Source of the DNA: Pseudonocardia sediminis
GTDB lineage: Bacteria > Actinomycetota > Actinomycetes > Mycobacteriales > Pseudonocardiaceae
Reading direction: 5' to 3'
NCBI RefSeq assembly: GCF_004217185.1
Contig: NZ_SHKL01000001.1
Span: forward strand, 2,316,001 to 2,380,000
Length of the DNA: 64,000 bases
A model generated the notes under the pieces. It ran no database searches, had not been told where the DNA came from, and saw only the letters and a program-made list of their open reading frames with translations. Below are positions 12,409 through 60,877 of this stretch, one piece after another. Position numbers and translations under genes: made by a program. How positions within the stretch are numbered: position 1 is the stretch's first letter; each line of letters begins with the position of its first letter.

Positions 12409-12457
12409 CGGCGGCACCGACCGGCGACCGGAGGGCGCGCCGACGGCGGGCGACGGC

Positions 12458-12463
12458 CAGGAT
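12458..12463 (+). promoter_or_regulatory. -10 element CAGGAT of the SnoaL-like gene; probable leaderless transcript
   Basis: CAGGAT ends six bases before the GTG at 12470, and no ribosome binding site is present between them. Confidence 0.35.
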
Positions 12464-12469
12464 CGACCC

Positions 12470-12829
12470 GTGACCGAGTCGGATGCCGGACAGATTCTTC
12501 GACGCCACGTCGTCGCCTTCAACGCCCGTGACGTCGACGAGCTGATGGCCGGGTTCACCGAGGACCCGGTGTGGAGCACCGGGTCGGACACCGTCCACGG
12601 ACGGGACGCGCTGCGCGACCTGTTCTCCGCGGCGATGTCCGAGCTGCTCCCGACCCTGACGATCCAGGACCTCGTGGCCGACGCCGACCGCGTGGCGGCC
12701 CAGATGGTCGAGACCCTGCGCGTCGACGGCACTGAGCGGACCTACGCGATCGCCGGGTTCTACGAGCTCCAGGACGGCCGGATCCGGTCGGCGACGATCT
12801 ACCGCGAGGGCAGTGCGGACGTGTCCTGA
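12470..12829 (+). CDS. SnoaL-like / nuclear transport factor 2 family protein
   Basis: A 119-residue single-domain protein with the cone-shaped NTF2-like fold: ILRRHVVAFNARDVDELMAGFTEDPVW at the N-terminus, then VHGRDALRDLF, and a C-terminal beta-sheet ending IAGFYELQDGRIRSATIYREG. Members are small-molecule isomerases, hydrolases or binding proteins. Nothing in the sequence fixes a substrate. GTG start at 12470. Confidence 0.75.
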   Translation: MTESDAGQILRRHVVAFNARDVDELMAGFTEDPVWSTGSDTVHGRDALRDLFSAAMSELLPTLTIQDLVADADRVAAQMVETLRVDGTERTYAIAGFYELQDGRIRSATIYREGSADVS

Positions 12830-12845
12830 CGTGCCGGGGGACCGG

Positions 12846-13034
12846 TCAGCCCGCGTCGGCGCCGGTCACGTCCTCGGCGGTGATGTCGCTCGGGCGCGTG
12901 TCGCAGGCCGGGCAGACGGCGATGAAGTTCGGCCGGTCCACCTCGCCCAGGCGGATCATGGTCCGGGCCCCGCGTCGCGAGCAGCACGTGCAGGTGAAGG
13001 ACCGGACGACGGCGATGGTGTGCGGACGGTTCAT
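12846..13034 (-). CDS. Small hypothetical protein with Cys pairs (putative zinc ribbon)
   Basis: A 62-residue protein starting at ATG 13032-13034, with a strong GGGAGAG ribosome binding site five bases upstream. It contains CTCC near residue 15 and CPAC near residue 41, spaced as in a treble-clef or zinc-ribbon knuckle, and basic residues between them (SRRGAR). I do not recognise the family. Convergent with the SnoaL-like gene. Confidence 0.6.
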   Translation of the reverse strand: MNRPHTIAVVRSFTCTCCSRRGARTMIRLGEVDRPNFIAVCPACDTRPSDITAEDVTGADAG

Positions 13035-13185
13035 GATCTCTCCCTGGGGCCGGGCGTAGCCGTCCGGTCCAGGGCGTCGTTGCCGTCCGAGGACAGCGTC
13101 CGTCGAAAGTACCCCGCCCCGGGCCGTCGCACATCCTCGGCGACGCAGGTCACGGCAGGCCCGGGGCCTCGAGAAGGGAAGAAGC

Positions 13186-13530
13186 GTGCGACCCACCGAC
13201 CTGCGACAGATCGTCTACGGGGTCCTCGCCGTCGTCGGTCTGGTCGGCACCTGGTACTTCAACCTGGCCCACGGCAGCGACCTCTCCACCTACGTCCCGG
13301 ACTGGTTCACCACCGCCGCGTCCTCGTCGGCGGCGGTGGACCTGATCGTCGCGTTCGTCGCGGGTGCGGTGTTCATGGTGGCCGAGGGGCGACGGGTCGG
13401 CATGCGCCTGGCCTGGGTGTTCCCGGTGGTCGGGCTGCTGGTCGCGTTCGCGTTCGCCTTCCCGCTGTTCCTCCTGCTGCGGGAGCGGGCGCTGGATCGG
13501 GGCCGCGCGACCCCGGGCACGCCCTCGTAG
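13186..13530 (+). CDS. DUF2834 membrane protein
   Basis: A 114-residue protein with three transmembrane helices (IVYGVLAVVGLVGTWYF; AAVDLIVAFVAGAVFMVAE; LAWVFPVVGLLVAFAFAFPLFLLL) and the family's TWYFN and EGRRVGMR patterns. Function of DUF2834 is unknown. GTG start at 13186 preceded by AAGGGAAG. Confidence 0.75.
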   Translation: MRPTDLRQIVYGVLAVVGLVGTWYFNLAHGSDLSTYVPDWFTTAASSSAAVDLIVAFVAGAVFMVAEGRRVGMRLAWVFPVVGLLVAFAFAFPLFLLLRERALDRGRATPGTPS

Positions 13531-13549
13531 GACGCGCCCGGGGTGCGGG

Positions 13550-14653
13550 TCAGGCCAGCGAGCGGGCGAAGCCGGTGACGTCGCGGACGGCGTTGGCGTA
13601 GACGTCCGGCATCGCGGAGCGGAACAGGATCTCCCCGACGTGGCACAGGCCCAGGTTGACCTTCCCGACCGACGGGACGCCCGCGGCGAGGAGCTTGCGG
13701 TGGTACTGCAGACCCTCGTCGCGCAGCGGGTCGACCTCGTCGACGGAGATCACGTGCGGGGGAAGTCCCTGCAGGTCGGCGTCGGTGGCGCGGTAGGGCC
13801 AGCAGGTGGGGTCGTTCGCGTTGGCGGCACCCGGGTCGTAGACCTCGGCGAGCAGCGGGAACAGGCTGCGGTTGAGCCAGTACTGGTTGTTCTCGTGCAG
13901 CGACGGCAGTTCGGGGCGCCCCTCGGCCCAGCCGTCGCCGAGGATGTAGGGGCACTGGGCGTACACGCCGGAGATCGCGTCCAGCCAGCCCTCGCGCTTG
14001 GCCTTGATCGGCAACGCGACGGCGAGGTTGGCCCCGCCGGAGTCCCCGGTGACGACGGTGGTCCCGGTGACCCCGAGCTCGTCGCGGTGCGCGTGCACCC
14101 ACTTCAGACCGGCGGCGCAGTCGTCGATTCCGGCCGGGAACGGGTGGGGGCCGAGAACGCCGCCGCCGTTGCGGTACTGCACGCCGACGACGACCGCGCC
14201 CGCCGCGGCGAGCTCCTCGCGCCAGTTCCGGTAGATCGGGCCCTCGGTCGAGAGCATCACCATGCCGCCGCCGTGCACCTGGTAGATGCAGGGCAACGGG
14301 CCGTCGACACCGGTCGGCCGGTGGACGTGCAGCGTGATCTCGTTGCCGTCCGGGCCGTCGATCGTCCGTGCCTCGTGGCTCACGCCGTCGACGCGGGGAG
14401 CGCCGTCGGCCAGAGCGGTGAACAGACCCTCGAACCCGACCTCGACGGCCGTGGTGAACTCCAGGAGTGCCTCCCGGCCGGCGTCCGGGCCCATCGGGGC
14501 GCCGTCGGCGTGCGGGCCCAGACCCAGCGCGTTGAACACCGCCATCATCCGCGGGTCGCAGCGCGGGTCGTCGGCCATCGTCAGCGCGGGGTCGCCGAGC
14601 CGGCCCGGGGGCCGGTGCGTGACGGATGCGTCGGGGGCGGTGTCGGTGCTCAT
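13550..14653 (-). CDS. Alpha/beta hydrolase of the hormone-sensitive-lipase family
   Basis: A 367-residue esterase/lipase. It has the oxyanion-hole motif HGGG (YQVHGGGMVML), the nucleophile elbow GDSGG (VVTGDSGGANLAVAL; family consensus GDSAG), an Asp in ISVDEVDPLRDEG and a His in LGLCHVGEI. The start ATG at 14651-14653 has GGAG seven bases upstream; a GTG two codons earlier is too close to that site. Cytosolic, no signal peptide. Likely acts on short-chain esters or hydroxy-acid esters; substrate unknown. Confidence 0.85.
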   Translation of the reverse strand: MSTDTAPDASVTHRPPGRLGDPALTMADDPRCDPRMMAVFNALGLGPHADGAPMGPDAGREALLEFTTAVEVGFEGLFTALADGAPRVDGVSHEARTIDGPDGNEITLHVHRPTGVDGPLPCIYQVHGGGMVMLSTEGPIYRNWREELAAAGAVVVGVQYRNGGGVLGPHPFPAGIDDCAAGLKWVHAHRDELGVTGTTVVTGDSGGANLAVALPIKAKREGWLDAISGVYAQCPYILGDGWAEGRPELPSLHENNQYWLNRSLFPLLAEVYDPGAANANDPTCWPYRATDADLQGLPPHVISVDEVDPLRDEGLQYHRKLLAAGVPSVGKVNLGLCHVGEILFRSAMPDVYANAVRDVTGFARSLA

Positions 14654-14825
14654 GCGCACACTCCTCGTCGAGTCGTTCGCCTGTGAGGAGCCTCACCCAC
14701 CGGTGTGGCGGCGTCAACGAGCCGAACGGACGCACGGGGCGAATCGGTGTCGGGGCGTTGCGGCAGAATCGCGGCGTTGCCCGTGACGACACCGGGTGAG
14801 TGGCATCTGTGAGAGAAGGAGTGAC

Positions 14826-16736
14826 GTGAGCACCGCGACCGAGACGATCGAGTTCCAGGCCGAGTCCCGACAGCTGCTGCAGCTGATGATCCACTCGATC
14901 TACTCGAACAAGGACATCTTCCTGCGCGAGCTGATCTCCAACGCCTCCGACGCGCTGGACAAGCTCCGGCTCGAGAGCCTGCAGGACAAGGACCTGGACG
15001 TCGACACGTCCGACCTGCACCTCGAGCTGGTCATCGACAAGGAGAACCGCACCCTGACCGTGCGGGACAACGGCATCGGCATGAGCCGCGACGAGGTCGT
15101 CGACCTCATCGGCACGATCGCCAAGTCCGGCACCGCCGAGCTGCTGGCCAAGCTCAAGGAGACCGACCCGGCGGCGTCGCAGGAGCTGATCGGCCAGTTC
15201 GGCGTCGGCTTCTACTCCAGCTTCATGGTCGCCGACACGGTCACGCTGGTGACGCGCAAGGCCGGTGAGAGCGCGGGCGTGCGCTGGGAGTCCGCGGGCG
15301 AGGGCTCGTACACGATCGAGCCCGTCGACGACGCGCCGCAGGGCACCGCCGTCACGCTGGCGCTCAAGGCGGAGGACGCCGAGGACAGCCTGCACGACTA
15401 CGCGAACCCGGCCACCGTCCGTCGCATCGTCAAGAAGTACTCCGACTTCATCACCTGGCCGATCCGGATGACCCCGGAGAAGGCCGCGGCGACCGAGGAG
15501 GGCGAGGAGCCCGCGGAGCCGCAGCCGGAGACCGTCAACTCGATGAAGGCGCTCTGGGCGCGGGCCCAGAAGGACGTCACGCCCGAGGAATACAACGAGT
15601 TCTACCGGCACGTCTCGCACGACTGGCAGGAGCCGCTGGAGACGATCCGGCTCGCCGCCGAGGGCACCTTCGAGTACCAGGCGCTGCTGTTCCTGCCGCA
15701 GGTCGCACCGATGGACCTCTACATGCGCGACTCCCGCCGCGGCGTGCAGCTCTACGTCCGGCGCGTGTTCATCATGGACGACTGCGAGGCGCTGGTCCCG
15801 GAGTACCTGCGGTTCGTCAAGGGCGTCGTCGACGCCGCGGACCTCTCGCTCAACGTGTCGCGCGAGATCCTGCAGCAGGACCGTCAGATCTCGGCGATCC
15901 GCCGTCGTCTGGTCAAGAAGGTGCTGTCCACGGTCAGGACGATGATGACCGAGGAGCCGGAGAAGTACACGACGTTCTGGGACCAGTTCGGGCGCGCGGT
16001 CAAGGAAGGCCTGATCTCCGACCACGACAACCTCGACGCGATCCTGGAGATCAGCTCCTTCGCCTCCACCCACGACGCGGAGAAGCCCACGACGCTGGCG
16101 CAGTACGTCGAGCGGATGAAGGACGGCCAGGAGCACATCTACTACATGACCGGCGACTCCCGGTCGTCGATCGAGTCCTCGCCGCACATGGAGGCGTTGC
16201 GTGACCGCGGCTACGAGGTCCTGCTGCTGACCGACCCGATCGACGAGGTCTGGGTCGACCAGGTGCCCGGCTTCGACGACAAGGAGCTGCGCTCGATCGC
16301 CAAGGGCCAGGTGGACCTGGAGACCGAGGAGCAGAAGGAGAAGGCCGGTGAGCAGCGCGAGGAGTTCGCCGGGTTGCTGGACTGGATGGGCACCACGCTG
16401 GCCGACGACGTCAAGGAGGTCCGCCTGTCCTCGCGGCTGACCACCTCGGCGGCGTGCCTGGTCAACGACGAGAACGACATGAGCCCGACCCTGGAGAAGA
16501 TGTACCGGGCGATGGGCCAGGAGATGCCGACGGTCAAGCGCATCCTGGAGCTCAACCCGTCGCACCCGCTGGTCGCCGGGCTGAAGTCCAAGCAGTCGGA
16601 GACGCCGGACGACGCGGGTCTGGGCGAGACCGCGGAGCTGCTCTACGGCATGGCCCTGCTGGCCGAGGGCGGGGAGCTGTCCGACCCGTCGCGCTTCGTC
16701 TCGCTCCTGGCCGGACGGTTGGAGCGCACGCTGTAG
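14826..16736 (+). CDS. htpG: Molecular chaperone HtpG (Hsp90 family)
   Basis: A 636-residue Hsp90. The N-terminal GHKL ATPase shows ELISNASDALDKLR, DNGIGMSRDEV, GTIAKSGT and GQFGVGFYSSFMVAD. The middle domain has RVFIMDDCEALVPEYLRFVKGVVDAADLSLNVSREILQQD. The C-terminal dimerisation domain ends near LLAGRLERTL. Length matches bacterial HtpG. GTG at 14826 sits five bases after AAGGAG; an in-frame GTG ten codons upstream lacks the family N-terminus. Cytosolic. A copy of the dispersed palindrome begins seven bases after the stop codon. Confidence 0.97.
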   Translation: MSTATETIEFQAESRQLLQLMIHSIYSNKDIFLRELISNASDALDKLRLESLQDKDLDVDTSDLHLELVIDKENRTLTVRDNGIGMSRDEVVDLIGTIAKSGTAELLAKLKETDPAASQELIGQFGVGFYSSFMVADTVTLVTRKAGESAGVRWESAGEGSYTIEPVDDAPQGTAVTLALKAEDAEDSLHDYANPATVRRIVKKYSDFITWPIRMTPEKAAATEEGEEPAEPQPETVNSMKALWARAQKDVTPEEYNEFYRHVSHDWQEPLETIRLAAEGTFEYQALLFLPQVAPMDLYMRDSRRGVQLYVRRVFIMDDCEALVPEYLRFVKGVVDAADLSLNVSREILQQDRQISAIRRRLVKKVLSTVRTMMTEEPEKYTTFWDQFGRAVKEGLISDHDNLDAILEISSFASTHDAEKPTTLAQYVERMKDGQEHIYYMTGDSRSSIESSPHMEALRDRGYEVLLLTDPIDEVWVDQVPGFDDKELRSIAKGQVDLETEEQKEKAGEQREEFAGLLDWMGTTLADDVKEVRLSSRLTTSAACLVNDENDMSPTLEKMYRAMGQEMPTVKRILELNPSHPLVAGLKSKQSETPDDAGLGETAELLYGMALLAEGGELSDPSRFVSLLAGRLERTL

Positions 16737-32602: not shown

Positions 32603-33949
32603 TCAGGGCGCGGGCACCCGCGGGGTCCCGGCCGGGTCGGCCACCGCGCGCACGGTGCTGCGACGACGCCCGGACGACTTGCCGGCCGGCTTCGGGGTGG
32701 AGTGCGCGTAGACCTCCTCCATCAGCGGCGGCCAGTCCTGGCGCAGGGCGTCGCGGCCCATGAACAGGCCGAGGTGACCGCCGGTGGCCACGCGCCGGGT
32801 GATGTCGCGCTCCGGCGTGCCGACGGCGTCCGCGGCCGCGAACAGCTGCGGCGGCGGCGTGATGTGGTCGGTGGAGCCGGCCAGCAGCAGCAGCGGGCAG
32901 GTGATCTCGGCCATGTCGACCTTCCGGCCGCCGATCTCCAGGTCACCGGCGATGAGCTTGTTCTTCCAGAACAGGTTCTCCACCAGCCACAGGTAGAAGG
33001 CACCCGGGATGTCCTGGGTGTGCTTGAACCAGTCCTCGAACACGCGGTAGCGCTCGACGTGCATCGGGTCGTCGATGTTCTCCAGCAGCTGCAGCTGCCG
33101 CGAGACCTCCGACTGCGGCTGGATCGAGATGAAGTTGCTCAGCACCGCGCGGCCGGGCATGTTCCCGCCACCCATCGCGACGAGCGCCTTGTACGGCGCG
33201 AGCCCCATCGTCCCGGCCATCAGCTTCGTCGACGCCGAGATCACCGACTCGCCGGCGTGGAAGTCGATCGGGGCCCCGGCCAGCGTGAGCGTGTTCACCC
33301 GCTCCGGGTACAGCGCGGCGAAGATGGTGGCCAGCCAGCCGCCCTGGCAGTCGCCGACCACGTTCGCCTTGCCGCCCATGCGTCGGATCGAGCGGTCGAT
33401 GACGGTGAGGTAGTCCTCGATCGAGACGTTGCGGGTCGCCGACGTCGCCGGCTTCCACTCCAGCGCGTAGACCCGGGTCAGCCCGGCCGCGCGGATCATC
33501 GCCAGCTGGCTCTGCTGTGGCGAGTAGTCGATCACCGTCGACGAGTGCCCGGCCTGCGGCGGCAGCACGATCGTCGGGATGACGTCGTCGTCGCGGTGGC
33601 CGTCCTCGGTGAAGTCGCGCAGTGCCGCGAACGGCGTCGAGAGGACGACCTCGTTCTTCAGGTGCCAGGCCGGCTCGCGGCGGTCGGCCATCGTCGACCA
33701 CCACAGCAGGTTGCGACGGGCGGCGTCCGCGGGGCTGGCGATCCGCTGGATCGAGTCGATCCACGCGGTGCGGGTCGCGCGTCCGACCTCGGAGACGACC
33801 TTGCCGATGTTGCGTGCGTTGTAGGAGAGCAGGTAGCGCAGCGGGTCCGGCTGGGCCTGGGGCGTCTCCGTGGTGGTGGCCGGGGCGTCCACGGCACGGG
33901 GGCCGCGGGTGGAACCGGTACTGGGGCTCGAGCCGATCGCCGTACTCAT
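32603..33949 (-). CDS. PhaC-like alpha/beta hydrolase (PHA synthase superfamily)
   Basis: A 448-residue protein of the PHA-synthase-related alpha/beta hydrolases. The nucleophile elbow is GDCQGG with Cys201 (PHA synthase G-x-C-x-G-G box), the Asp is D361 (LLAGSTDHITPP) and the His is H392 (ATGGHLGLFMG). The N-terminal 90 residues differ from true class I synthases and may bind partners. ATG at 33947-33949 with GGAG eight bases upstream. It is divergent from phaC across a 273-base intergenic region. Whether it polymerises, transfers or hydrolyses hydroxyacyl thioesters is not clear. Confidence 0.78.
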   Translation of the reverse strand: MSTAIGSSPSTGSTRGPRAVDAPATTTETPQAQPDPLRYLLSYNARNIGKVVSEVGRATRTAWIDSIQRIASPADAARRNLLWWSTMADRREPAWHLKNEVVLSTPFAALRDFTEDGHRDDDVIPTIVLPPQAGHSSTVIDYSPQQSQLAMIRAAGLTRVYALEWKPATSATRNVSIEDYLTVIDRSIRRMGGKANVVGDCQGGWLATIFAALYPERVNTLTLAGAPIDFHAGESVISASTKLMAGTMGLAPYKALVAMGGGNMPGRAVLSNFISIQPQSEVSRQLQLLENIDDPMHVERYRVFEDWFKHTQDIPGAFYLWLVENLFWKNKLIAGDLEIGGRKVDMAEITCPLLLLAGSTDHITPPPQLFAAADAVGTPERDITRRVATGGHLGLFMGRDALRQDWPPLMEEVYAHSTPKPAGKSSGRRRSTVRAVADPAGTPRVPAP

Positions 33950-34222
33950 AGCCGTACTCCCATCGACGTTGATGCACCGGAACGACCCGGTTACCGAACG
34001 GTAAGCGCTGTTCGGTATGTCAAGCAACCTCGGTCCTACCCACGAGTAGTGCTTGCTCGACCAAGCGCAGGTGAGAGGGCTTACAGAGACCGAACTCCTT
34101 CAGACGCTGCCTACCGGCGAGTACACCGTCACGATGGGTGAACCACGCGCGGCGTGCGCCCGGACCGGGCCCCGCCGCCAGGCACGGACAACCGACCGGC
34201 CGACATCAGGAGAGTTCCGACA
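33950..34222. promoter_or_regulatory. Divergent regulatory region of phaC-like and phaC genes
   Basis: Three candidate sites are visible. TTACCGAACGGTAA at 33991-34004 is a 6-2-6 palindrome. GTATGTCAAGCAA at 34015-34027 is, on the minus strand, TTGCTTGACATAC, identical to the phasin -35 region at 36629-36641. GCTTG-CTCGAC-CAAGC at 34051-34066 is another inverted pair of the same half-site. AGGAG at 34208-34212 is the ribosome binding site for phaC. This arrangement fits control of both genes by one regulator. Confidence 0.55.
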
Positions 34223-35998
34223 GTGTCCAGCGAGCCCACCCCGACCACCCCGTCCCTCGATCCGGCCCAGGCGACCGAGACCCTGCGCCGCCAGGCCCTG
34301 AGTCTCGTCGCCGACCTGCGGGAGCTGGCCAGCCCCGCCGGCGTCGGTGCGAAGGTGGACCCGGTCGGCTTCGGCGACGCCCTCGGCGAAGCCGCGCGGG
34401 CGCTGGTCTCCAGTCCCGGCTCGGTGCTGCGCAGCGGCCTCGGCCTCGGTGTCGACTCCGCCCGAGCCGTGCTGGCCGCCGCCTCGCGCGCCGTCGGCGG
34501 CACCACGGCCGGACCGGCCTCCCTGCCGGAGAACGACAAGCGCTACGCCGACCCGGCCTGGGAGAGCAACGCCTGGTACTACCTGTGCCGCCAGGAGCAC
34601 CGTCTCGTCGCCGACCGCCTCGAGGAGCTCTCGGCCGCGGCCAAGGTCTCGCCGGTCGCGCGTCGCAAGCTCGACTTCCTCGTCAAGCAGGTCACCGAGG
34701 CGCTGGCCCCGACGAACACCATGCTGACCAACCCGGCATGGGCGAAGAAGATCGTCGAGACCGGCGGGCTGAACGTCGTGCGTGGGGCGCGCAACGCGCT
34801 GCGGGACACGGTGCAGAACCGGGGGATGCCGCGCCAGACCACGCCGGGGCAGTACGTCGTCGGCAAGGACCTGGGCATCACGCCGGGCCAGGTGGTCTAC
34901 CGGAACCGTCTGATCGAGCTCATCCAGTACGAGCCGCAGACCGAGAAGGTCCACGAGATCCCGCTGCTGATGTCGCCGCCGTGGATCAACAAGTACTACA
35001 TCATGGACCTCGCGCCGCAGAAGTCGCTGGTGGAGTGGGCCGTGCAGCACGGCCACACGGTCTTCATGATGAGCTACCGCAACCCGGACTCGTCGCTGCG
35101 CGACGTCACGATGAGCGACTACCTGCAGGAGGGCCCGCTCGCGGCGCTCGACACCGTGCAGGAGATCACCGGCGCGGAGAAGGTCAACCTCGCCGGGCTG
35201 TGCCTGGGTGGCACGCTCGCCGCCGCGACGACGGCCTGGCTCACGGCCCGCGGCGACACCCGGGTCAACTCGCTGACGCTGATGAACACGCTGCTCGACT
35301 TCACCGGCCCCGGCCAGCTCGGGGTGTTCACCGACGAGAAGACGGTGAACCGGATGGAGCGCTCCATGCGCAAGGACGGCTACCTGCCGGCCTCGAGCAT
35401 GAAGACCACGTTCGACCTGCTGCGCGCTACCGACCTGGTGTGGAACTACGTCGTCAACGACTGGATGCTCGGCGAGGACCCCAAGCCGTTCGACATGCTC
35501 AGCTGGAACGCCGACTCCACGCGGATGCCCGCGGCCATGCAGGTCGAGTACCTGCGTGACCTCTACCTGGAGAACAAGTTCTCCGAGGGCAAGCTGGAGC
35601 TGGCCGGCGAGCGGCTCGACATCTCCGACGTCCGCCAGGACGCCTACGTCATCACCGCCGAGTCCGACCACATCGCGCCGTGGAAGGGCGTCTACACCGG
35701 CGCCGCCAAGCTCGGTGGGAAGGTGCGGTTCGTGCTCTCGAACTCCGGCCACATCGCCGGCGTGGTGAACCCGCCCTCGCCCAAGTCGCGGCACTGGTTC
35801 GGCGAGGCCGAGGAGCTCCCGGCGAACGCCGAGGACTGGCGCGACGACGCCGGCGAGCACAAGGCCAGCTGGTGGGAGGACTGGTCGCCGTGGATCGAGG
35901 AGCACGCGGGCAAGAAGATCGCCCCGCCGAAGCAGCTCGGCAGCACCGCGAACCCGCCGCTCGAGCCGTCGCCGGGGCGCTACGTCCGTAACGACTAG
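34223..35998 (+). CDS. phaC: Class I poly(3-hydroxyalkanoate) synthase
   Basis: A 591-residue PHA synthase that polymerises (R)-3-hydroxyacyl-CoA on granule surfaces. It has a PhaC N-terminal domain (YADPAWESNAWYYLCRQEHRL ... FLVKQVTEALAPTNTMLTNPAW) and an alpha/beta hydrolase domain with the triad C327 (GLCLGG), D482 (ESDHIAPW) and H510 (SNSGHIAGVVNPP). GTG at 34223 is preceded by AGGAG; a longer frame from 34154 lacks a ribosome binding site. A PhaC-like gene is divergent, and regulator plus phasin genes follow. Confidence 0.93.
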   Translation: MSSEPTPTTPSLDPAQATETLRRQALSLVADLRELASPAGVGAKVDPVGFGDALGEAARALVSSPGSVLRSGLGLGVDSARAVLAAASRAVGGTTAGPASLPENDKRYADPAWESNAWYYLCRQEHRLVADRLEELSAAAKVSPVARRKLDFLVKQVTEALAPTNTMLTNPAWAKKIVETGGLNVVRGARNALRDTVQNRGMPRQTTPGQYVVGKDLGITPGQVVYRNRLIELIQYEPQTEKVHEIPLLMSPPWINKYYIMDLAPQKSLVEWAVQHGHTVFMMSYRNPDSSLRDVTMSDYLQEGPLAALDTVQEITGAEKVNLAGLCLGGTLAAATTAWLTARGDTRVNSLTLMNTLLDFTGPGQLGVFTDEKTVNRMERSMRKDGYLPASSMKTTFDLLRATDLVWNYVVNDWMLGEDPKPFDMLSWNADSTRMPAAMQVEYLRDLYLENKFSEGKLELAGERLDISDVRQDAYVITAESDHIAPWKGVYTGAAKLGGKVRFVLSNSGHIAGVVNPPSPKSRHWFGEAEELPANAEDWRDDAGEHKASWWEDWSPWIEEHAGKKIAPPKQLGSTANPPLEPSPGRYVRND

Positions 35999-46734: not shown

Positions 46735-47232
46735 TCAGCCGCGGTGCCGGGCGAGGATGACGAGCGCGACGGCGCCGTCCGGGTTCCCGGGCGACGCCGG
46801 GAGTTCCTGCTCGCGCACGAAGCCCTCGCTCGCGTAGAGGGCGAGGGCCCTCGTGTTGCCCGGCTTGACGTCGAGCCACACCCGTCCGGCCATGGCGAAC
46901 GCCCGGTCGACGGCCGCCCGCAGCGCCGCCCGGCCCAGACCGCGGCCCCGGTGCTCCGGCGCGACCACGATCCGTCGCAGCTCGACGCCGTACTCGGTCC
47001 CGCGCGGGGCGGCCAGCACGACGAACCCGGCGACGACGCCCCCGCCCACCGCACCTCTGTCCACGACGACCAGGTGCTCCCGGTCCGGGTCCTCGAGCGC
47101 GCCCGCGTGCCAGTGCCGCGAGGACTCGCCGAGCCACACGGCCGTGTCCGGCGCCGTCTCGATCTCCAGCACCCGGTCCAGGTCGCCGGCCCCGGTGCGG
47201 CGCAGGACCACCTCCGGGACCGGGCCGGTCAT
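46735..47232 (-). CDS. GNAT family N-acetyltransferase
   Basis: A 165-residue acetyltransferase with the acetyl-CoA motif LRRIVVAPEHRGRGLGRAALRAAVDRAF (R-x-x-G-x-G) and the downstream NTRALALYASEGFV motif. Substrate unknown. ATG at 47230-47232 overlaps the stop of the upstream hydrolase gene, making a translationally coupled pair with the depolymerase-like gene. Confidence 0.85.
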   Translation of the reverse strand: MTGPVPEVVLRRTGAGDLDRVLEIETAPDTAVWLGESSRHWHAGALEDPDREHLVVVDRGAVGGGVVAGFVVLAAPRGTEYGVELRRIVVAPEHRGRGLGRAALRAAVDRAFAMAGRVWLDVKPGNTRALALYASEGFVREQELPASPGNPDGAVALVILARHRG

Positions 47233-48077
47233 CCGGTCAGGAAGCCGTCGATGATCGGGGCGAAGCGCTCCGGGGAGACCAGCAGCTCCAGGTGACCGCC
47301 GCGGTAGGTCTCCAGCCGGGAGTCGCGGATGCCGCGCGACAGCAGCTTCGCGTTGCCGTTCGGGACGATCGGGTCGTCGTCGCCGGCCAGGATCAGCGTG
47401 GGCGCGCGGATCGAGCCGAGCAGCGGCAGGCTCGTCCAGCCGTAGAGCGCGAGCAGCTGGTAGTAGTAGCCGCGCATCGGCCCGCGGCGCGCTCCGGAGC
47501 CCAGTACCTGCGAGGCCAGCTCCGGGTGCTCGCGCATGGTGCCGCCGTAGATCGTGGACGCGACGGCGTCGACGTAGCCGGGGTCCTGGTGCCGGCGCGG
47601 CGTCGACATCGCGCTCATCACCCGCGGCGAGGCCGGGATCATCAGCGCACCGGTGCCGGTCGCGGCCAGCACCAGACGGCGCAGCCGGCGTCGGCGGGAC
47701 AGGGCGAACTGCTGGGCGAGCATGCCGCCCCAGGAGAACCCCATGACGTCGACCTCGCGCACACCCAGCCGGGTCAGGACCTGGCCGAGGCGGTGCGCCA
47801 TCCACGTCAGGTGGTAGGGCAGCGACGGCATCGCCGAGCCGCCGATCCCCGGCGGGTCGAAGCGGATCACGTCCAGGTTCGCCGGCAGCTCGTGGACCAG
47901 GGGGTCCAGGACGTCGGTCGCCGCCCCGATGCCGTTGCAGATCAGCAGCGGCGTGCGGCGCGGCCCGGGCCCGGACGCCGGCCGGACGACGACACGCAGG
48001 CTGCGCCCGCCCACCACGACGTCGTGCTTCTCGACGTGGCGGGGCGCGGCGGGTCGGTGCTCGAGCGGAGAAGCCAT
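47229..48077 (-). CDS. PhaZ-like intracellular poly(3-hydroxyalkanoate) depolymerase / alpha-beta hydrolase
   Basis: A 282-residue alpha/beta hydrolase that closely follows Pseudomonas medium-chain PHA depolymerase PhaZ in order and wording of blocks: TPLLICNGIGA, RFDPPGIGGSAMPSLPYHL, VMGFSWGGMLAQQFALS (Ser nucleophile), LVLAATGTGALMIPASPRV, STIYGGTMREHPELA, LYGWTSLPLLGSIRAPTLILAGDDDPIVP (Asp) and YRGGHLELL (His). It would mobilise storage polymer. It lies 141 bases downstream of the inactive PhaC paralogue. A TACCCT -10-like element (48086-48091, minus strand) sits eight bases before its ATG. Confidence 0.83.
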   Translation of the reverse strand: MASPLEHRPAAPRHVEKHDVVVGGRSLRVVVRPASGPGPRRTPLLICNGIGAATDVLDPLVHELPANLDVIRFDPPGIGGSAMPSLPYHLTWMAHRLGQVLTRLGVREVDVMGFSWGGMLAQQFALSRRRRLRRLVLAATGTGALMIPASPRVMSAMSTPRRHQDPGYVDAVASTIYGGTMREHPELASQVLGSGARRGPMRGYYYQLLALYGWTSLPLLGSIRAPTLILAGDDDPIVPNGNAKLLSRGIRDSRLETYRGGHLELLVSPERFAPIIDGFLTG

Positions 48078-48218
48078 CGAGGAGGAGGGTAGGTCGCGAT
48101 CCGCGGCGGGGACAGCGGGGGCGATCGGAGATCCGCCGGAGACGTCGCGGTGGCGGCGTGGTGACCAGCGGCGCGGACGCGTGCACGTGCATCCGCCCAC
48201 ATTCGGACGGGGCGTCGC

Positions 48219-49904
48219 TCAGCGGGTCAGGTACGTCCCGGGGGCCGGGAACAGGGGGTGCAGCCGTCGTCCGCCGAGCTCCGGAGGCGCGTCGCGCAGG
48301 GTGCCGGATCGGGCGCCCAGCCATTCGGTGAGGTCGTCCCACCAGGAGCCGGGCCGCTCGCGGCTGCGCTCGAGCCAGTCGTCCGGCCCGGAGTACGCGC
48401 CGGTGGTGACCGGCTCGGTGCCGACCCGGAAGGACGCCGCGGACGCGCGGTCCGGCGGGACGAGCAGTGCGCCCGCCTGGTCACCGCCGGCCAGCACCAT
48501 CCGGCAGGGGCCGCCGAGCAGCTCCGCGGTGCGGTAGCCGGCCGTCCAGCGCTGCACCGGGTCGTCCGCGGCGGCGACGAGGTAGGCGTCGCGGGTCAGC
48601 AGGCGCGGCTCGACCGGCGTGCCCAGGACCGTCGTGCCCGGGTGGTCGGCGTCGGCGGAGGCGAGCGCGACGAGGTCGGCGTGCAGAGCCGCGGGCATCC
48701 GCAGCAGGTCCGCCGACCAGTGTTGCAGCGCCCCACGCGCGGACTCCGAGATCTGGCCGTGGGCGCAGGCGGGGGTGACCTCGTAGGGCCGGACCTGCTC
48801 GCCGCCGTTGCGCCAGGTCCAGGAACGGGCCGCGACCGGGCCCTCCAGCACGCCGTCGCGGGCGGCGAGGTCGGTGGCGGCGCGGGTCGCTCCCGGGTCG
48901 AGCCGGAAACCGGGCAGCGCCGCGGACTGGTCGAGCACCGTGGCCAGGTACACCGACGCGGCGATCCGGTCGTCGGACCCGATCGCGGTCAGGTGCGACT
49001 GCACGGCCGCGGCGAGCAGACCTCCGGTGCGGACGCCGAGCAGCGCGATCCGCGGACGCCGGGTGATCCGGGTGCAGGCGTCGACGGCGTCGAGCACGGC
49101 CGCGACGTAGGCGTCGAGGTCGCGCCCACGCTCGGCCGGGCCGGGGTCGGGCCAGGACAGCGCGAACACCTGGTGCCGCGACCTGACCAGGTGCTCGACG
49201 AGCGAGTGCCGCGGCGCGAGGTCGGCCAGGTAGTAGCGGTGCACGAGCGGTGGGACGACGAGGACGGCCACGTCGTGCACCTGATCGGTCTGCGGCAGGT
49301 ACTGCAGCAGCTCGCACATCGGCGTGCGCAGCACGACCGCGCCCGGGGTGGCGGCGATGTCGCGGCCGGGGACGGGGCCGGCGACGTCGTGGCGCCGGGT
49401 GCCGGTGTCGAACGGGGTGGACGGCCCGGCCGGGTCCGGTGGGGTGAACACCGGAGCGTCGACGGCCGGTGGCGGCGCCGGGGCGGGTGCCTCCGCCGGA
49501 CGGGCCGGGCAGATCAGGTCCGAGACGATCGTGAGGATCTCCCGCATGCGGGCCTCGTCGTCGGCGCCCAGGCCCGGGGTGCAGGCTCCCGCGCCGTCGT
49601 CCCGTGCGGTGGCGTCGTCGAGCAGCCCGGCGAGCGCTCCGGCGGTGACCAGGTAGGTCTGCATCGCCCGGCGCCGCATCGGGTCGGTGAGCCAGCCCGG
49701 TTCGGCGAACCGCTCGTCGGCGCGGTGCGGGGCGACCGTCGACGTGCCGAGCCCGACGGCCCCGAGGTCGGCCACCAGGCCGGCGCCGCGGCGGAGCACC
49801 GACAGCGGGCGCCCGGCCATGCTCACGGCGAGCCGTGCCGTGGCGCGCGGGGCGAGGAGGCGGCGCAGGCCACCCGTCGAGCCCGTGTCGTCCCGCCCGC
49901 TCAT
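48219..49904 (-). CDS. PhaC-family paralogue with degenerate active site (probable pseudo-enzyme)
   Basis: A 561-residue protein aligned with PHA synthases: CELLQYLPQTDQVHDVAVLVVPPLVHRYYLADLAPRHSLVEHLV and FALSWPDP match the phaC gene at 34223. The nucleophile box is GVRTGG, so Arg292 replaces the catalytic Cys. The His region reads LAGGDQAGALLVPP, so Gln476 replaces the catalytic His; the Asp (about D448) is kept. A Pro/Ala-rich insert (residues 132-165) separates the N-terminal region. The reading frame is open over its full length. It may bind granules or regulate the true synthase. Divergent from a methyltransferase gene, upstream of phaZ. Confidence 0.85.
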   Translation of the reverse strand: MSGRDDTGSTGGLRRLLAPRATARLAVSMAGRPLSVLRRGAGLVADLGAVGLGTSTVAPHRADERFAEPGWLTDPMRRRAMQTYLVTAGALAGLLDDATARDDGAGACTPGLGADDEARMREILTIVSDLICPARPAEAPAPAPPPAVDAPVFTPPDPAGPSTPFDTGTRRHDVAGPVPGRDIAATPGAVVLRTPMCELLQYLPQTDQVHDVAVLVVPPLVHRYYLADLAPRHSLVEHLVRSRHQVFALSWPDPGPAERGRDLDAYVAAVLDAVDACTRITRRPRIALLGVRTGGLLAAAVQSHLTAIGSDDRIAASVYLATVLDQSAALPGFRLDPGATRAATDLAARDGVLEGPVAARSWTWRNGGEQVRPYEVTPACAHGQISESARGALQHWSADLLRMPAALHADLVALASADADHPGTTVLGTPVEPRLLTRDAYLVAAADDPVQRWTAGYRTAELLGGPCRMVLAGGDQAGALLVPPDRASAASFRVGTEPVTTGAYSGPDDWLERSRERPGSWWDDLTEWLGARSGTLRDAPPELGGRRLHPLFPAPGTYLTR

Positions 49905-50106
49905 CGACGATCCCTCCCGTGGAGGGTCATCCCGCCCACGTCCCCACCCTGCCCGTCGCCGCGACCACCCGCGACCGGTCCATCTTCCCTCCCCGGTCGC
50001 GACGGGCGCCGTTCACCCCGCGGCCCGCGCGCGGTCAGCCGGGTCGGACATCGTGGCGGCGACGTGACCTCGCCGGACACCCCGGCGACCCGGCGAGAGG
50101 TGGATC

Positions 50107-50760
50107 ATGGCGACCAGGACCGACCGCGGTGGCGGCACGGCGGAGCGGGCGCGGTTCCTCGGCGAGTTCCTGCGCGACCCGGCCCGCACGGCGGCCCCGG
50201 CGCCGAGCTCGCGGGCACTGGCCGAGGTCGTCTGCGCGCCGGTGCCGGGCACCGGGGACCCGGTCGTCGTCGAGCTCGGGCCGGGGACGGGGGCGTTCAG
50301 CGACCTCGTGCAGGAGCGCCTGGGCGGGCGCGGGCACCACCTGGCCGTCGAGCTGAACCCGCGGCTGGCCGGGATGCTGCGCCGCCGTCACCCCGCGATC
50401 GACGTGGCGGTCGCCGGGGCCGCGGAGCTGCCGGCCCTGCTGGCGCAGCGGGGACTGGGCGGTGCGGACGTGGTGGTCTCCGGACTGCCGTGGGCGGCCT
50501 ACCCGACCACCGGCCCCCGCCTGACCGACCTGATCGCCGGGTCGCTGCGCCCGGACGGTGCCTTCACCCAGTTCACCTACGTCTGGTCGCGGTGGGCGCC
50601 GCCGGCCCGCCGTCAGCACCGCTGGCTGCACGACGCGTTCGAGGAGGTCGTGGCGAGCCGGACGATCTGGCCCAACCTGCCCCCGGCCCTGGTCTACCTG
50701 GCACGACGCCCCCAGGCGGTGGGCCACGACCGGCGGGCGCCGGGCGCGCGGCTACCCTGA
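50107..50760 (+). CDS. SAM-dependent methyltransferase, PmtA/KsgA-like
   Basis: A 217-residue class I methyltransferase: FLGEFLRDPARTAAPAPSSRALAE then motif I PVVVELGPGTGAFSDLVQERL, LAVELNPRLAGMLRRRHP and VVSGLPWAAYP (NLPY-like). This pattern matches phospholipid N-methyltransferases (PmtA type) and rRNA adenine dimethylases. FTQFTYVWSRWAPPARR near the C-terminus favours the phospholipid type. ATG 50107 has GAGAGG nine bases upstream. Confidence 0.75.
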   Translation: MATRTDRGGGTAERARFLGEFLRDPARTAAPAPSSRALAEVVCAPVPGTGDPVVVELGPGTGAFSDLVQERLGGRGHHLAVELNPRLAGMLRRRHPAIDVAVAGAAELPALLAQRGLGGADVVVSGLPWAAYPTTGPRLTDLIAGSLRPDGAFTQFTYVWSRWAPPARRQHRWLHDAFEEVVASRTIWPNLPPALVYLARRPQAVGHDRRAPGARLP

Positions 50761-50910
50761 TCGACGCCCCGGAAGCCGGTTCGCCGGTCCACTCGGCGGG
50801 GCGGGGTGGAAGTCGATCTCCACCCGCCCGGCAGCGTCGCCGGGACGTACGGTTCCTCCCCGCGCAGGCGTTCGGACGGGGCGGAAGAGACCGCGGACCA
50901 GGGGAGACGT

Positions 50911-52641
50911 GTGTCGCAGGCCCAACTCGCCTCGCCGGAGACCCGGCCGCTGCGCGCGTGGCAGCGCAGTGCGCTGGCGCGCTATCTGGCCACGCAGCCG
51001 AAGGACTTCCTGGCGGTCGCGACGCCCGGCGCCGGCAAGACGACGTTCGCGCTGCGGGTGGCCGGTGAGCTGCTCGCGGACCGGACGATCGACGCGGTCA
51101 CGGTCGTCACGCCGACCGAGCACCTGAAGTACCAGTGGGCCGAGTCGGCCACCTACGCCGGGATCGCGATCGACCCGGAGTTCCGCAACTCCGCGGGCGG
51201 CACGTCGAGCGACTACCACGGCATCGCCGTCACCTACGCCGGTGTCGCGGCGCACCCGATGCTGCACCGGGCCCGGTCGGAGAACCGCCGGATGCTCGTC
51301 ATCCTCGACGAGATCCACCACGCCGGCGACGCCCGGTCCTGGGGCGAGGCGGTGTCCGAGGCGTTCGACCCGGCCGTCCGGCGCCTGGCGCTGACCGGGA
51401 CCCCGTTCCGCTCCGACGACAACCCGATCCCGTTCGTCGAGTACGTCCCCGACGCCGAGGGCGCGCCGCGCAGCCGTGCCGACCACCAGTACGGCTACGC
51501 CGAGGCGCTCGCCGACAACGTGGTCCGGCCCGTGGTCTTCCTCGCCTACTCCGGCACGTCGAACTGGCGCACCAGCGCGGGCGAGGAGATCTCGGCGCGC
51601 CTCGGCGAGCCGATGACGAAGGAGCAGACCGGCATGGCCTGGCGCACCGCGCTGGACCCGGCCGGGGAGTGGATGCCCGCGGTGCTCGCCGCCGCGGACC
51701 GTCGCCTGCAGAGCCACCGCGACGGCGGCATGCCCGACGCCGGCGGGCTGGTGATCGCCTCCGACCAGGCGGCGGCGAGGTCGTACGCGGCGATCCTGCG
51801 CACCGTCACCGGCGTAATGCCCACGGTCGTGCTCTCCGACGAGGCCGGCTCCTCGGACCGGATCGCGGACTTCTCCCGCTCGGAGGAGCGCTGGATGGTC
51901 GCGGTCCGGATGGTCTCCGAGGGCGTCGACGTGCCGCGGCTGGCCGTCGGGGTCTATGCGACGTCGGCGTCCACGCCGCTCTACTTCGCCCAGGCCATCG
52001 GCCGGTTCGTGCGGTCGCGGCGGCCCGGCGAGACGGCGTCGGTGTTCGTGCCCAGCGTGCCGGTGCTGCTCGCGCTGGCCAGCGAGCTGGAGGCGCAGCG
52101 CGACCACGTCCTCGGCAAGCCGCACAAGGCCGAGGAGGTGTGGAACGACGAGGAGCTCAACGACGCGAACAAACAGAAGGACGAGCCCGGCGAGCAGGAG
52201 AAGGCGTTCACCTCGCTCGGTGCCGACGCCGAGCTCGACCAGCTGATCTACGAGGGCACGTCGTTCTCCGCCGACGAGGAGGACTACCTCGGACTGCCCG
52301 GCCTGCTCGAGCCCGACCAGGTGCGCACGCTGCTGTCCAAGCGCCAGCAGGACTGGATCGCCAAGGGCTCACCGCGCACCGGCGCCCAGGCCCGCGCCAC
52401 CCCGGCCACCGAGCCGACCCCGCCGCCGCCCGCCGAACGCGCCCCGCAGAGCACCCGGGAGCGGTTGCAGACCCTGCGCAAGGAGCTCAACACCCTCGTC
52501 GCGCTGCACAACCACAAGACGAACAAGCCGCACGGCGTGATCCACAACGAGCTGCGCCGGCACTGCGGTGGTCCGCCGACCGCCATGGCCAACATGGACC
52601 AGTTGGAGGAACGGATCGCCACCCTTCGGTCCTGGCGCTGA
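50911..52641 (+). CDS. SF2 DEAD/DEAH-box helicase
   Basis: A 576-residue superfamily-2 helicase: Q-like LRAWQRSAL, Walker A ATPGAGKTT (K43), motif Ia VVTPTEHLKYQW, DEAH-variant LDEIHHAGD, motif III LTGTPFRSD, motif V SEGVDVPRL and motif VI QAIGRFVRSRR. The C-terminal 150 residues are acidic then Pro/Ala-rich, ending in a helical domain (RLQTLRKELNTLVALHNHKTNKPHGVIHNELRR) found in an actinobacterial helicase family. GTG at 50911 follows GGGGAGA. Probably acts in repair or RNA metabolism. Confidence 0.88.
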   Translation: MSQAQLASPETRPLRAWQRSALARYLATQPKDFLAVATPGAGKTTFALRVAGELLADRTIDAVTVVTPTEHLKYQWAESATYAGIAIDPEFRNSAGGTSSDYHGIAVTYAGVAAHPMLHRARSENRRMLVILDEIHHAGDARSWGEAVSEAFDPAVRRLALTGTPFRSDDNPIPFVEYVPDAEGAPRSRADHQYGYAEALADNVVRPVVFLAYSGTSNWRTSAGEEISARLGEPMTKEQTGMAWRTALDPAGEWMPAVLAAADRRLQSHRDGGMPDAGGLVIASDQAAARSYAAILRTVTGVMPTVVLSDEAGSSDRIADFSRSEERWMVAVRMVSEGVDVPRLAVGVYATSASTPLYFAQAIGRFVRSRRPGETASVFVPSVPVLLALASELEAQRDHVLGKPHKAEEVWNDEELNDANKQKDEPGEQEKAFTSLGADAELDQLIYEGTSFSADEEDYLGLPGLLEPDQVRTLLSKRQQDWIAKGSPRTGAQARATPATEPTPPPPAERAPQSTRERLQTLRKELNTLVALHNHKTNKPHGVIHNELRRHCGGPPTAMANMDQLEERIATLRSWR

Positions 52642-59149: not shown

Positions 59150-60877
59150 GTGGGGACGGGACCGGACGCGACGCCGCGGGTTGCGCTCGACCCCGGCTCC
59201 GACGGCGCCCCGATCCGGGTCCGGCGGCTCGCCGAGGACGGTGCGCCCCTGGGGGAGGCCGAGGCCCTGCCCGGCCCGGACGCGGTCGTCGCGCTGGAAC
59301 GCGAGCTGTCGCCCCGCTGGGTACTGGCGCGGTCCCGCTCCTACCGCCGCCTGCTCGACGCCGGGGTCCCGCTCGGCCGCGCGCACGACGTCGAGCTGAC
59401 CGAGGGGCTGCTGGTCGGCGCGGACGGCGGGTTCGGCGAGCCGCACGGCCTCGCCGCCGCGGTGGCCCGCCTGGACGGGAGGCGGCCCCGGCCGGACCCG
59501 TCACCGGTGGACGACGGCCCGCCCGGCCTGTTCGACCCCGGCCTGTTCGATGCCGGCCCGCTCGCCCCGGGGCCGGCGGGCGCGGGCCCGGACTCCGCGG
59601 CCTCGTCCGGCGCCGGGGTGTTCGGGAACGGCTCACGCTCCGAGGAGCTGGCCGACGTCGTCGCCGTGCACGCCGCCCAGCAGCGGCGGCTCGCGGCCGG
59701 TCCGGCGGGGATGCGGATGCTGGTCGCGGCCGAGTCGACCGGGGCGCTGGTCGCGGAGGAGATGCGCCGCGACGGCCTGCCCTGGCGCGCCGACGTGCAC
59801 GACCGGCTGCTCACCGACGTCCTCGGCCCGCGCCCGGTGCTCGGCGGGCGGCCGCCGCGCCTGGCCGGGCTGGCCCGGGAGATCACCGACGCGTTCGGCG
59901 GGCGGGCGGTGAACCCGGACTCCCCGGCCGACCTGCTGCGTGCGTTCGCCCGGGCCGGGTACGAGCTGCGCACCACCCGCGCGTGGGAGATCCGCAAGGT
60001 CGACCACCCGGCGGTCGCGCCGTTGCTGGCCTACAAGGAGCTGGCCCGGCTGCACGCCGCGCACGGCTGGTCGTGGCTCGACACCTGGGTGCGCGGGAAC
60101 CGGTTCCACCCCGAGTACGTCGTCGGCGGCGTGGTGTCCGGGCGGTGGGCCACCCGCGGCGGCGGCGCGCTGCAGATCCCGCGGGCGGTGCGGGCGGCCG
60201 TGCGCGCGGATCCGGGGTGGCGGCTGGTCGTCGCCGACGCCGCGCAGCTCGAGCCCCGCGTGCTGGCCGCGATGGCCCGCGAGCCGGCCCTGGCCCCGGA
60301 CGTCGACGACCTGTACTCCGCGCTCGCCGCGGCCGAGTTCGGCGGCGACCGCGCGAAGGCCAAGCTGGGCCTGCTCGGGGCGATGTACGGGCAGACCTCG
60401 GGTGGCGCGGCACCGGCGCTGGCGACGCTGCGGCGCCGGTTCCCGTCGGCGATGGCTTTGCTGGAGGACGCGGCGCGGGCGGGGGAGGAGGGACGCCTCG
60501 TCCGGTCGCACCTCGGCCGGACCTGCCCACCGGCGCGTCCCGGCGACGAGGCGGACGTCCCGGCCCGCGCCCGCGGCCGGTTCACCCGCAACTTCGTCGT
60601 CCAGGCCACGGCTGCGGAATGGGCGCTCGTGCTGCTCGCCGAGCTCCGACATGCGTTGCGCCGCAAGCAGAGCCCGGCACAGCTGGTGTTCTTCCAGCAC
60701 GACGAGGTGCTGCTGCACGTCCCCGCCGAGGTGGCCGACGACGCCGCCGAGACCGTGCACGCCGCCGCGGCGACGGCCGGTCGGCGGCTCTTCGGCGACA
60801 CCCCGGTGCGGTTCCCGATGCAGGCCCGCGTGGTGTCCGGCTACGACGAGAAGGACGCCGTCCCGGCCGCTCCCTGA
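59150..60877 (+). CDS. Family-A DNA polymerase-like protein (actinobacterial bifunctional 3'-5' exonuclease/DNA polymerase)
   Basis: A 575-residue protein. The C-terminal half has family-A polymerase motifs: motif A VVADAAQLEPRVLAAMA (Asp at about 362), motif B DRAKAKLGLLGAMYGQTSGG and motif C FFQHDEVLLHVP (HDE at about 516). The N-terminal half is divergent and contains a Gly/Pro/Ala insert (residues about 120-165); exonuclease acidic residues are not clear. There is no 5'-nuclease domain, so it is not the main Pol I. Motif A differs from the usual DYSQIELR. Likely a repair or lesion-handling polymerase. Confidence 0.85.
   Translation: MGTGPDATPRVALDPGSDGAPIRVRRLAEDGAPLGEAEALPGPDAVVALERELSPRWVLARSRSYRRLLDAGVPLGRAHDVELTEGLLVGADGGFGEPHGLAAAVARLDGRRPRPDPSPVDDGPPGLFDPGLFDAGPLAPGPAGAGPDSAASSGAGVFGNGSRSEELADVVAVHAAQQRRLAAGPAGMRMLVAAESTGALVAEEMRRDGLPWRADVHDRLLTDVLGPRPVLGGRPPRLAGLAREITDAFGGRAVNPDSPADLLRAFARAGYELRTTRAWEIRKVDHPAVAPLLAYKELARLHAAHGWSWLDTWVRGNRFHPEYVVGGVVSGRWATRGGGALQIPRAVRAAVRADPGWRLVVADAAQLEPRVLAAMAREPALAPDVDDLYSALAAAEFGGDRAKAKLGLLGAMYGQTSGGAAPALATLRRRFPSAMALLEDAARAGEEGRLVRSHLGRTCPPARPGDEADVPARARGRFTRNFVVQATAAEWALVLLAELRHALRRKQSPAQLVFFQHDEVLLHVPAEVADDAAETVHAAAATAGRRLFGDTPVRFPMQARVVSGYDEKDAVPAAP

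What the first reader, a model, noticed from the sequence alone, without database searches (positions are those of the whole stretch)
48219..49904. PHA synthase paralogue that lost catalytic Cys and His but kept a full open frame
The nucleophile box is GVRTGG (Arg292 for Cys) and the histidine position is Gln476, while the Asp and the fold-wide blocks (PPLVHRYYLADLAP, LRxH-SLVEHL) are kept. A clean 561-codon frame argues against decay. It sits upstream of a PhaZ-like depolymerase, so it may be a granule-bound regulator, a decoy subunit of the active synthase 13 kb away, or a hydroxyacyl-CoA sensor.
Basis: partly seen in the sequence, partly recalled or inferred. Interest (0 to 1): 0.7.

Follow-up and report, generated by a model that had tools for sequence, protein, structure and literature searches.

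The report
Conserved pseudo-synthase beside PHA depolymerase
A gene descended from a bacterial bioplastic (PHA) synthase has lost its catalytic cysteine and histidine yet is preserved by natural selection across the genus Pseudonocardia, so a dead enzyme appears to have been kept for a different, still untested job.

Summary
Observation confirmed, on the minus strand. The 561-aa protein is a full-length PhaC homologue and AlphaFold gives a PhaC fold (Z 47.9 to 5xav/6k3c). The elbow is GVRTGG (Arg292 for Cys), Asp448 is kept, His is Gln476. It is neither a recent mutation nor a sequencing error. In 50 Pseudonocardia genomes an orthologue sits beside the same helicase gene: 11 keep Cys-Asp-His, 39 lack Cys (R, G, S, A, W or H). 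All 50 paralogues sampled elsewhere keep the triad, and every neighbouring PhaZ keeps Ser-Asp-His (31/31). A tree of neighbouring genes rejects a single Cys-less clade (AU p = 1e-7), so at least two losses are likely, although the PhaC tree alone allows one. Cys-less copies are under strong purifying selection (omega 0.05-0.12). In the Arg clade the alpha/beta core is as constrained as in intact enzymes (0.038 against 0.041), while N-domain, LID and tail are relaxed (0.148 against 0.062). In four near-complete genomes a Cys-less copy is the only class I/II PhaC, which argues against a general "decoy subunit" role. Best reading: a genus-specific pseudo-synthase whose former active-site core is kept, probably to bind a hydroxyacyl ligand. 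Selection evidence is strong; function is inferred.

The parts
48219..49904 (-). pseudo-PHA-synthase gene (561 aa), catalytic Cys and His lost
   Evidence: AF2 mean pLDDT 84.8, Z 47.9 to PhaC 6k3c/5xav
49029..49031 (-). codon 292, CGC (Arg) at the nucleophile-elbow Cys position (GVRTGG)
48561..48563 (-). codon 448, Asp aligned with catalytic Asp (kept)
48477..48479 (-). codon 476, Gln at the catalytic His position
49512..49874 (-). helical N-terminal domain (residues 11-131), retained but relaxed
48915..49379 (-). alpha/beta core A+B (residues 176-330) with the elbow, strongest constraint in the Arg clade
   Evidence: omega 0.036/0.031
48600..48914 (-). CAP/LID region (residues 331-435); the LID part (331-386) relaxed, aC helix residues W396/D399 invariant
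48405..48599 (-). core C (residues 436-500) with the former Asp and His loops, strongly constrained
   Evidence: omega 0.033
47229..48200 (-). PhaZ-like depolymerase gene, same strand, next downstream (18 bp by the longest ORF; the true start is probably further in), triad intact
50107..50760 (+). divergent OlsG/PmtA-like methyltransferase gene found only in Arg-clade genomes
50806..52641 (+). helicase gene that anchors the synteny of the orthologues
34142..35995 (+). catalytically intact class I PhaC about 12 kb away

Best explanation
A lineage-specific pseudoenzyme. An ancestral phaC-phaZ pair (intact in other actinobacteria and in 11 Pseudonocardia species) lost the synthase's nucleophile in most Pseudonocardia species while the gene stayed under purifying selection. 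SHOWN: synteny, triad loss in 39/50, intact triads in 50/50 paralogues and in 31/31 PhaZ neighbours, omega much below 1, and core constraint equal to that of active enzymes in the Arg clade. INFERRED: it cannot polymerise by the PhaC Cys-thioester mechanism; the rebuilt former active site (R292, D448, D475, Q/R476, H222) still binds a hydroxyacyl-CoA or an alkanoate chain end; and ligand binding regulates PHA turnover, in this lineage most likely together with the neighbouring active PhaZ. This is the logic by which the receptor GID1 arose from hormone-sensitive lipases.
For: Triad states across 50 syntenic orthologues and 50 paralogues (Fisher p 8e-18). 52 non-Pseudonocardia relatives all keep the Cys. 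dN/dS 0.05-0.12 within Cys-less pairs, LRT over 100 in every pair. Arg-clade core 0.038 against rest 0.148, LRT 124; intact 0.041/0.062. Coordinated, clade-fixed pocket changes: N222H, C292R, S293T, H449P, G475D, A478G; N222 corresponds to PhaC_Cs Asn220, the only polar residue facing its Site B water cluster (PMC5509742). PhaZ triad intact 31/31. PhaC fold predicted with high confidence for ours and for the only PhaC of P. kunmingensis.
Against: No ligand, partner, expression or phenotype data. The core of any folded protein is more constrained than its periphery, so the omega contrast does not prove ligand binding. The replacement residue differs between clades, so no single pocket chemistry is shared. 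PhaZ is not directly beside the gene in 20 of the 39 Cys-less cases (in G002 it lies about 5 kb away). Some copies look decayed: frameshifts in G076/G079 (and G030, possibly an assembly error), large deletions or divergence in G014, G017, G023, G069, G073.
Confidence: 0.4

Rival explanations
1. Decoy or regulatory subunit: it forms heterodimers with the active class I PhaC (34142-35995) and tunes its activity, as proposed for Bradyrhizobium PhaC2.
For: Active PhaC in the same genome; precedent hypothesis in B. diazoefficiens (PMC10888616) and inactive granule-binding PhaC2 of R. eutropha (PMC3556143).
Against: Four near-complete genomes carry the Cys-less gene as their only PF07167 protein and no TIGR02240 PhaZ. 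The LID/CAP and N-domain used for PhaC dimers (PMC5509742) are the relaxed or deleted parts. It is most similar to the phaC-phaZ type, not to the class I PhaC1 (31% identity).
Confidence: 0.2
2. Granule-surface scaffold that positions or controls the neighbouring depolymerase PhaZ by protein contact, without using the pocket.
For: Adjacent same-strand gene pair with the PhaZ triad intact in all 31 neighbours; inactive R. eutropha PhaC2 can bind granules (PMC3556143).
Against: 20 of 39 Cys-less copies lack PhaZ directly beside them. The most constrained part is the former active-site core, not the N-domain or tail.
Confidence: 0.2
3. A new enzyme: the rebuilt site catalyses a Cys-independent reaction on a hydroxyacyl substrate.
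For: Clade-fixed new pocket residues with the Asp retained in 32/39; core constraint equal to that of active enzymes.
Against: The elbow residue differs between clades, including Gly and Ala, which cannot act as a nucleophile; the His is also lost in most.
Confidence: 0.1
4. Slow pseudogenisation of a redundant phaC, with open frames surviving because of the very high GC.
For: Frameshifts or deletions in several genomes, faster protein evolution and rising GC1/GC2 in Cys-less copies, long antisense open frames.
Against: Omega 0.05-0.12 in pairs that diverged after the loss, LRT 101-342; region-specific constraint. True only for individual lineages.
Confidence: 0.07

Closest known systems
Class I/II PHA synthase PhaC (Chromobacterium 5xav/6k3c, C. 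necator 5t6o, A. caviae 9knj; TIGR01838/TIGR01839)
   Same: Full-length homology, alpha/beta hydrolase core, CAP with aC helix W396/D399, helical N-domain, catalytic Asp
   Different: Nucleophile Cys is Arg, general-base His is Gln; scores far under the subfamily cut-offs; the pocket's Asn is His
phaC-phaZ pairs of actinobacteria (Geodermatophilus, Nocardia, Nocardioides, Rhodococcus; also two other loci of this genome)
   Same: Closest relatives, same PhaZ neighbour
   Different: All of those relatives keep the catalytic Cys
Catalytically inactive PhaC2 of Ralstonia eutropha and PhaC2 of Bradyrhizobium diazoefficiens
   Same: PhaC paralogues without (detected) activity beside an active PhaC; the R. 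eutropha protein can bind granules (PMC3556143); heterodimer regulation hypothesised for the other (PMC10888616)
   Different: No genus-wide syntenic loss of the catalytic Cys is described in the passages read, and their triads were not compared here; the Pseudonocardia protein also exists without any active PhaC in some genomes
Non-catalytic alpha/beta hydrolase receptors and adhesion proteins (GID1, neuroligins)
   Same: Superfamily precedent for losing the triad and keeping the fold for ligand or protein binding (PMC3531792, PMC5943944)
   Different: Different families and organisms; GID1 kept its Ser and Asp and lost the His

Membership tests
PHA synthase (class I/II PhaC), as a protein family | Homology over the PhaC N-region and catalytic domain, with PhaC fold | tested here: met
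PHA synthase (class I/II PhaC), as an enzyme | Nucleophilic Cys in GxCxGG | tested here: not met
   GVRTGG
PHA synthase (class I/II PhaC), as an enzyme | Catalytic His | tested here: not met
   Q476
PHA synthase (class I/II PhaC), as an enzyme | Catalytic Asp | tested here: met
   D448
PHA synthase (class I/II PhaC), as an enzyme | Polymerisation of hydroxyacyl-CoA | not testable with these tools
   needs biochemistry
NCBIfam TIGR01838/TIGR01839 subfamilies | Score over the curated cut-off | tested here: not met
   210.5 against 622.65 and 262.5 against 855.4 bits; the intact PhaC1 of the window also misses its cut-off, narrowly (597.5)
Pseudoenzyme (conserved catalytically incompetent homologue) | Catalytic residues lost while the protein is kept by purifying selection | tested here: met
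Pseudoenzyme (conserved catalytically incompetent homologue) | Demonstrated lack of activity and a non-catalytic function | not testable with these tools
   needs experiment
Decoy/heterodimer subunit of an active PhaC | An active PhaC partner always present in the same genome | tested here: not met
   absent in G004, G011, G034, G064; present in the window's own genome

The most novel reading that the evidence does not exclude
A bacterial GID1-like case: PHA synthases in one genus repeatedly converted into non-catalytic hydroxyacyl receptors that keep a rebuilt pocket and, in some lineages, outlive the PHA synthase itself.
Probability: 0.25. Interest if true: 0.8.

Novelty: new variant of a known kind. 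Interest (0 to 1): 0.58.

Why it matters
PHA synthase paralogues without activity have been noted in single species, and their role has stayed unclear. Here a whole genus offers intact and dead orthologues at one syntenic locus, with an unchanged depolymerase partner, so the question 'what does a dead PhaC do?' becomes directly testable. It also warns annotation pipelines that such genes, if labelled PHA synthases, should not be counted as PHA-forming capacity; in four near-complete genomes the only class I/II 'PhaC' lacks its nucleophile.

Tried and rejected
Recent mutation or sequencing error: rejected, 39 genomes lack the Cys and 12 have Arg at the same codon. Alternative Cys in the elbow or misalignment: rejected by the PhaC alignments. 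'Clean frame' as proof of function: rejected as weak at this GC content, replaced by dN/dS. A single origin of Cys loss: the PhaC gene tree allows one change, but the neighbouring-gene tree rejects a single Cys-less clade (dlnL 175, AU p 1e-7); long branches in the PhaC tree, or horizontal replacement, could explain the conflict, so 'at least two losses' is likely, not proven. A hidden class III PhaC replacing PhaC in the PhaC-less genomes: the class III-like relative there has a Ser elbow (GWSLAG/GWSIAG/GWSIGG) and low scores. Literature searches for a described triad-less PhaC family found none in the open library, which does not exclude subscription papers.

Full report
Observation. The frame lies on the minus strand of 48219-49904 and starts at an ATG with a good ribosome-binding sequence. 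It is a PhaC homologue: PhaC_N 2e-22, TIGR01839 5e-78 and TIGR01838 4e-62, solved PhaCs at 1e-44 to 1e-47. AlphaFold gives mean pLDDT 84.8 and the closest solved structures are PhaCs, Z 46-48 over about 360 residues, against Z below 25 for any other family. In the alignments R292 replaces the nucleophile Cys, D448 keeps the Asp, and Q476 replaces the His.

Where it comes from. The window's genome holds four phaC-like genes: this one, an intact class I PhaC at 34142-35995, and two intact phaC genes elsewhere, each followed by a PhaZ. Searching the genus (62 genomes) and the family and fetching about 20 kb around each place shows that an orthologue lies beside the same helicase gene in the 50 genomes used for analysis (two of them, G065 and G078, were placed by sequence because their contigs end there). 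Eleven keep Cys-Asp-His. Thirty-nine lack Cys: 16 Gly, 12 Arg, 7 Ser, 2 Ala, 1 Trp, 1 His. The Asp is kept in 32 of the 39. All 50 paralogues sampled at other loci keep C-D-H (Fisher p 8e-18), and 52 relatives in Geodermatophilus, Blastococcus, Nocardia, Nocardioides, Rhodococcus and others all keep the Cys. The ancestral arrangement is therefore an intact phaC-phaZ pair. Named species with the Arg type include P. endophytica, P. ammonioxydans and P. parietis; with the Ser/Ala type P. autotrophica, P. halophobica, P. terrae and P. kujensis; with the Gly type P. kunmingensis and P. humida; intact P. hydrocarbonoxydans, P. acidicola, P. bannensis and P. oceani.

How often. On the PhaC tree, built without the triad columns, the Cys state can be explained by one change. 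On a tree of eleven neighbouring genes (3317 columns) a single Cys-less clade is rejected (AU p 1e-7): intact G013/G033 and intact G005- and G075-type genomes separate an Arg/Ser/(G017) group from a Gly group. Two or more independent losses is the likelier reading; replacement by transfer, or long-branch attraction in the PhaC tree, remain possible causes of the conflict.

Selection. Pairwise maximum-likelihood codon models on close pairs that diverged after the loss give omega 0.05-0.12 (LRT against 1 from 101 to 342), 0.060 for the window gene against its nearest relative, next to 0.03-0.10 for intact orthologues and 0.015-0.047 for the helicase. GC3 stays at 0.91-0.99 with GC2 near 0.6. By region, the Arg clade has omega 0.038 in the alpha/beta core (176-330, 436-500) and 0.148 in the N-domain, linker, LID and tail (LRT 124), whereas intact orthologues have 0.041 and 0.062. 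So the part around the former active site is kept as strictly as in working enzymes and the rest is relaxed. The Gly group is relaxed throughout (0.077/0.128). Pocket positions have shifted together in the Arg clade and are nearly fixed there: H222, R292, T293, P449, D475, A477, G478. Asn220 of the Chromobacterium enzyme, the equivalent of H222, is the one polar residue facing a water cluster in the pocket, and its Trp392 and Asp395, equivalents of the invariant W396 and D399, hold the aC helix in place (PMC5509742).

Context. The next gene on the same strand is a PhaZ-like depolymerase. In all 31 genomes where this PhaZ lies near the locus it keeps Ser-Asp-His, so catalytic decay is confined to the synthase half. 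The PhaZ neighbour is present in all 11 intact cases and in about half of the Cys-less ones. A divergently transcribed OlsG/PmtA-like methyltransferase is found in every Arg-clade genome with flanking sequence and in no other. In G004 (P. kunmingensis), G011, G034 (one contig) and G064, all 97-99% complete, the Cys-less gene is the only PF07167 protein, no TIGR02240 PhaZ is found, and the class III-like relative has a Ser elbow; the P. kunmingensis protein still has a confident PhaC fold (pLDDT 89.4). Pairs of these genomes still show omega about 0.11.

Reading. A protein without the nucleophile cannot form the acyl-thioester intermediate of PHA synthesis (established mechanism of PhaC), so it is most likely not a synthase. 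Purifying selection says it does something. Constraint focused on the former active-site core favours ligand binding over a pure scaffold, the absence of any active class I/II PhaC in some carriers argues against a universal decoy subunit, and the intact PhaZ neighbour makes PHA turnover the likeliest process in the window's lineage. GID1, thought to have arisen from lipases by loss of the His with the pocket reused for a hormone (PMC3531792), and neuroligins (PMC5943944) are superfamily precedents. Inactive PhaC2 of R. eutropha (granule-binding, function unknown, PMC3556143) and PhaC2 of B. diazoefficiens (heterodimer hypothesis, PMC10888616) are the nearest known paralogues.

Limits. No expression, binding or phenotype data exist here. 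Different clades may do different things or be on the way to loss: frameshifts (G076, G079, perhaps G030) and large deletions or strong divergence (G014, G017, G023, G069, G073, G074, G077) occur. dS reaches 1-2 in some pairs, so omega values are approximate, but the closer pairs (dS 0.3-0.6) agree.

Noticed in passing
window 50107-50760 (+): OlsG/PmtA-like lipid N-methyltransferase, divergent from the pseudo-synthase; present in all Arg-clade genomes with flank and in none of the other orthologous loci.
   Followed up: partly
window 32603-34027 (-): PhaC/PhaZ-like alpha/beta hydrolase with a Cys elbow (GDCQGG; TIGR01836 1.5e-38, TIGR01849 3e-22), divergent from the intact phaC at 34142; probably an intracellular PHB depolymerase.
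   Followed up: partly
L116 (G079) 13933-15139; L113 (G076) 12237-13711: Orthologues with an apparent frameshift, in G079 right at the nucleophile elbow; decay or assembly error.
   Followed up: no
L045, L046, L111, L114 (G017, G023, G074, G077): Orthologues that have lost most of the CAP region and the former catalytic loops while PhaZ stays intact and the shortened gene keeps low dN/dS.
   Followed up: partly
L220 1755-2726 (window's genome, about 6 kb before the window) and homologues in L219, L221-L223: Conserved class III PhaC-like protein with a Ser elbow (GWSLAG/GWSIGG, or AWSLGG in the window's genome), function unclear.
   Followed up: partly
window 48258-51068 (+): 936-aa antisense open frame across the gene: shows how little an open frame means at this GC content.
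   Followed up: yes
window 59150-60877 (+): Bifunctional 3'-5' exonuclease/DNA polymerase (NF011538), ordinary.
   Followed up: no
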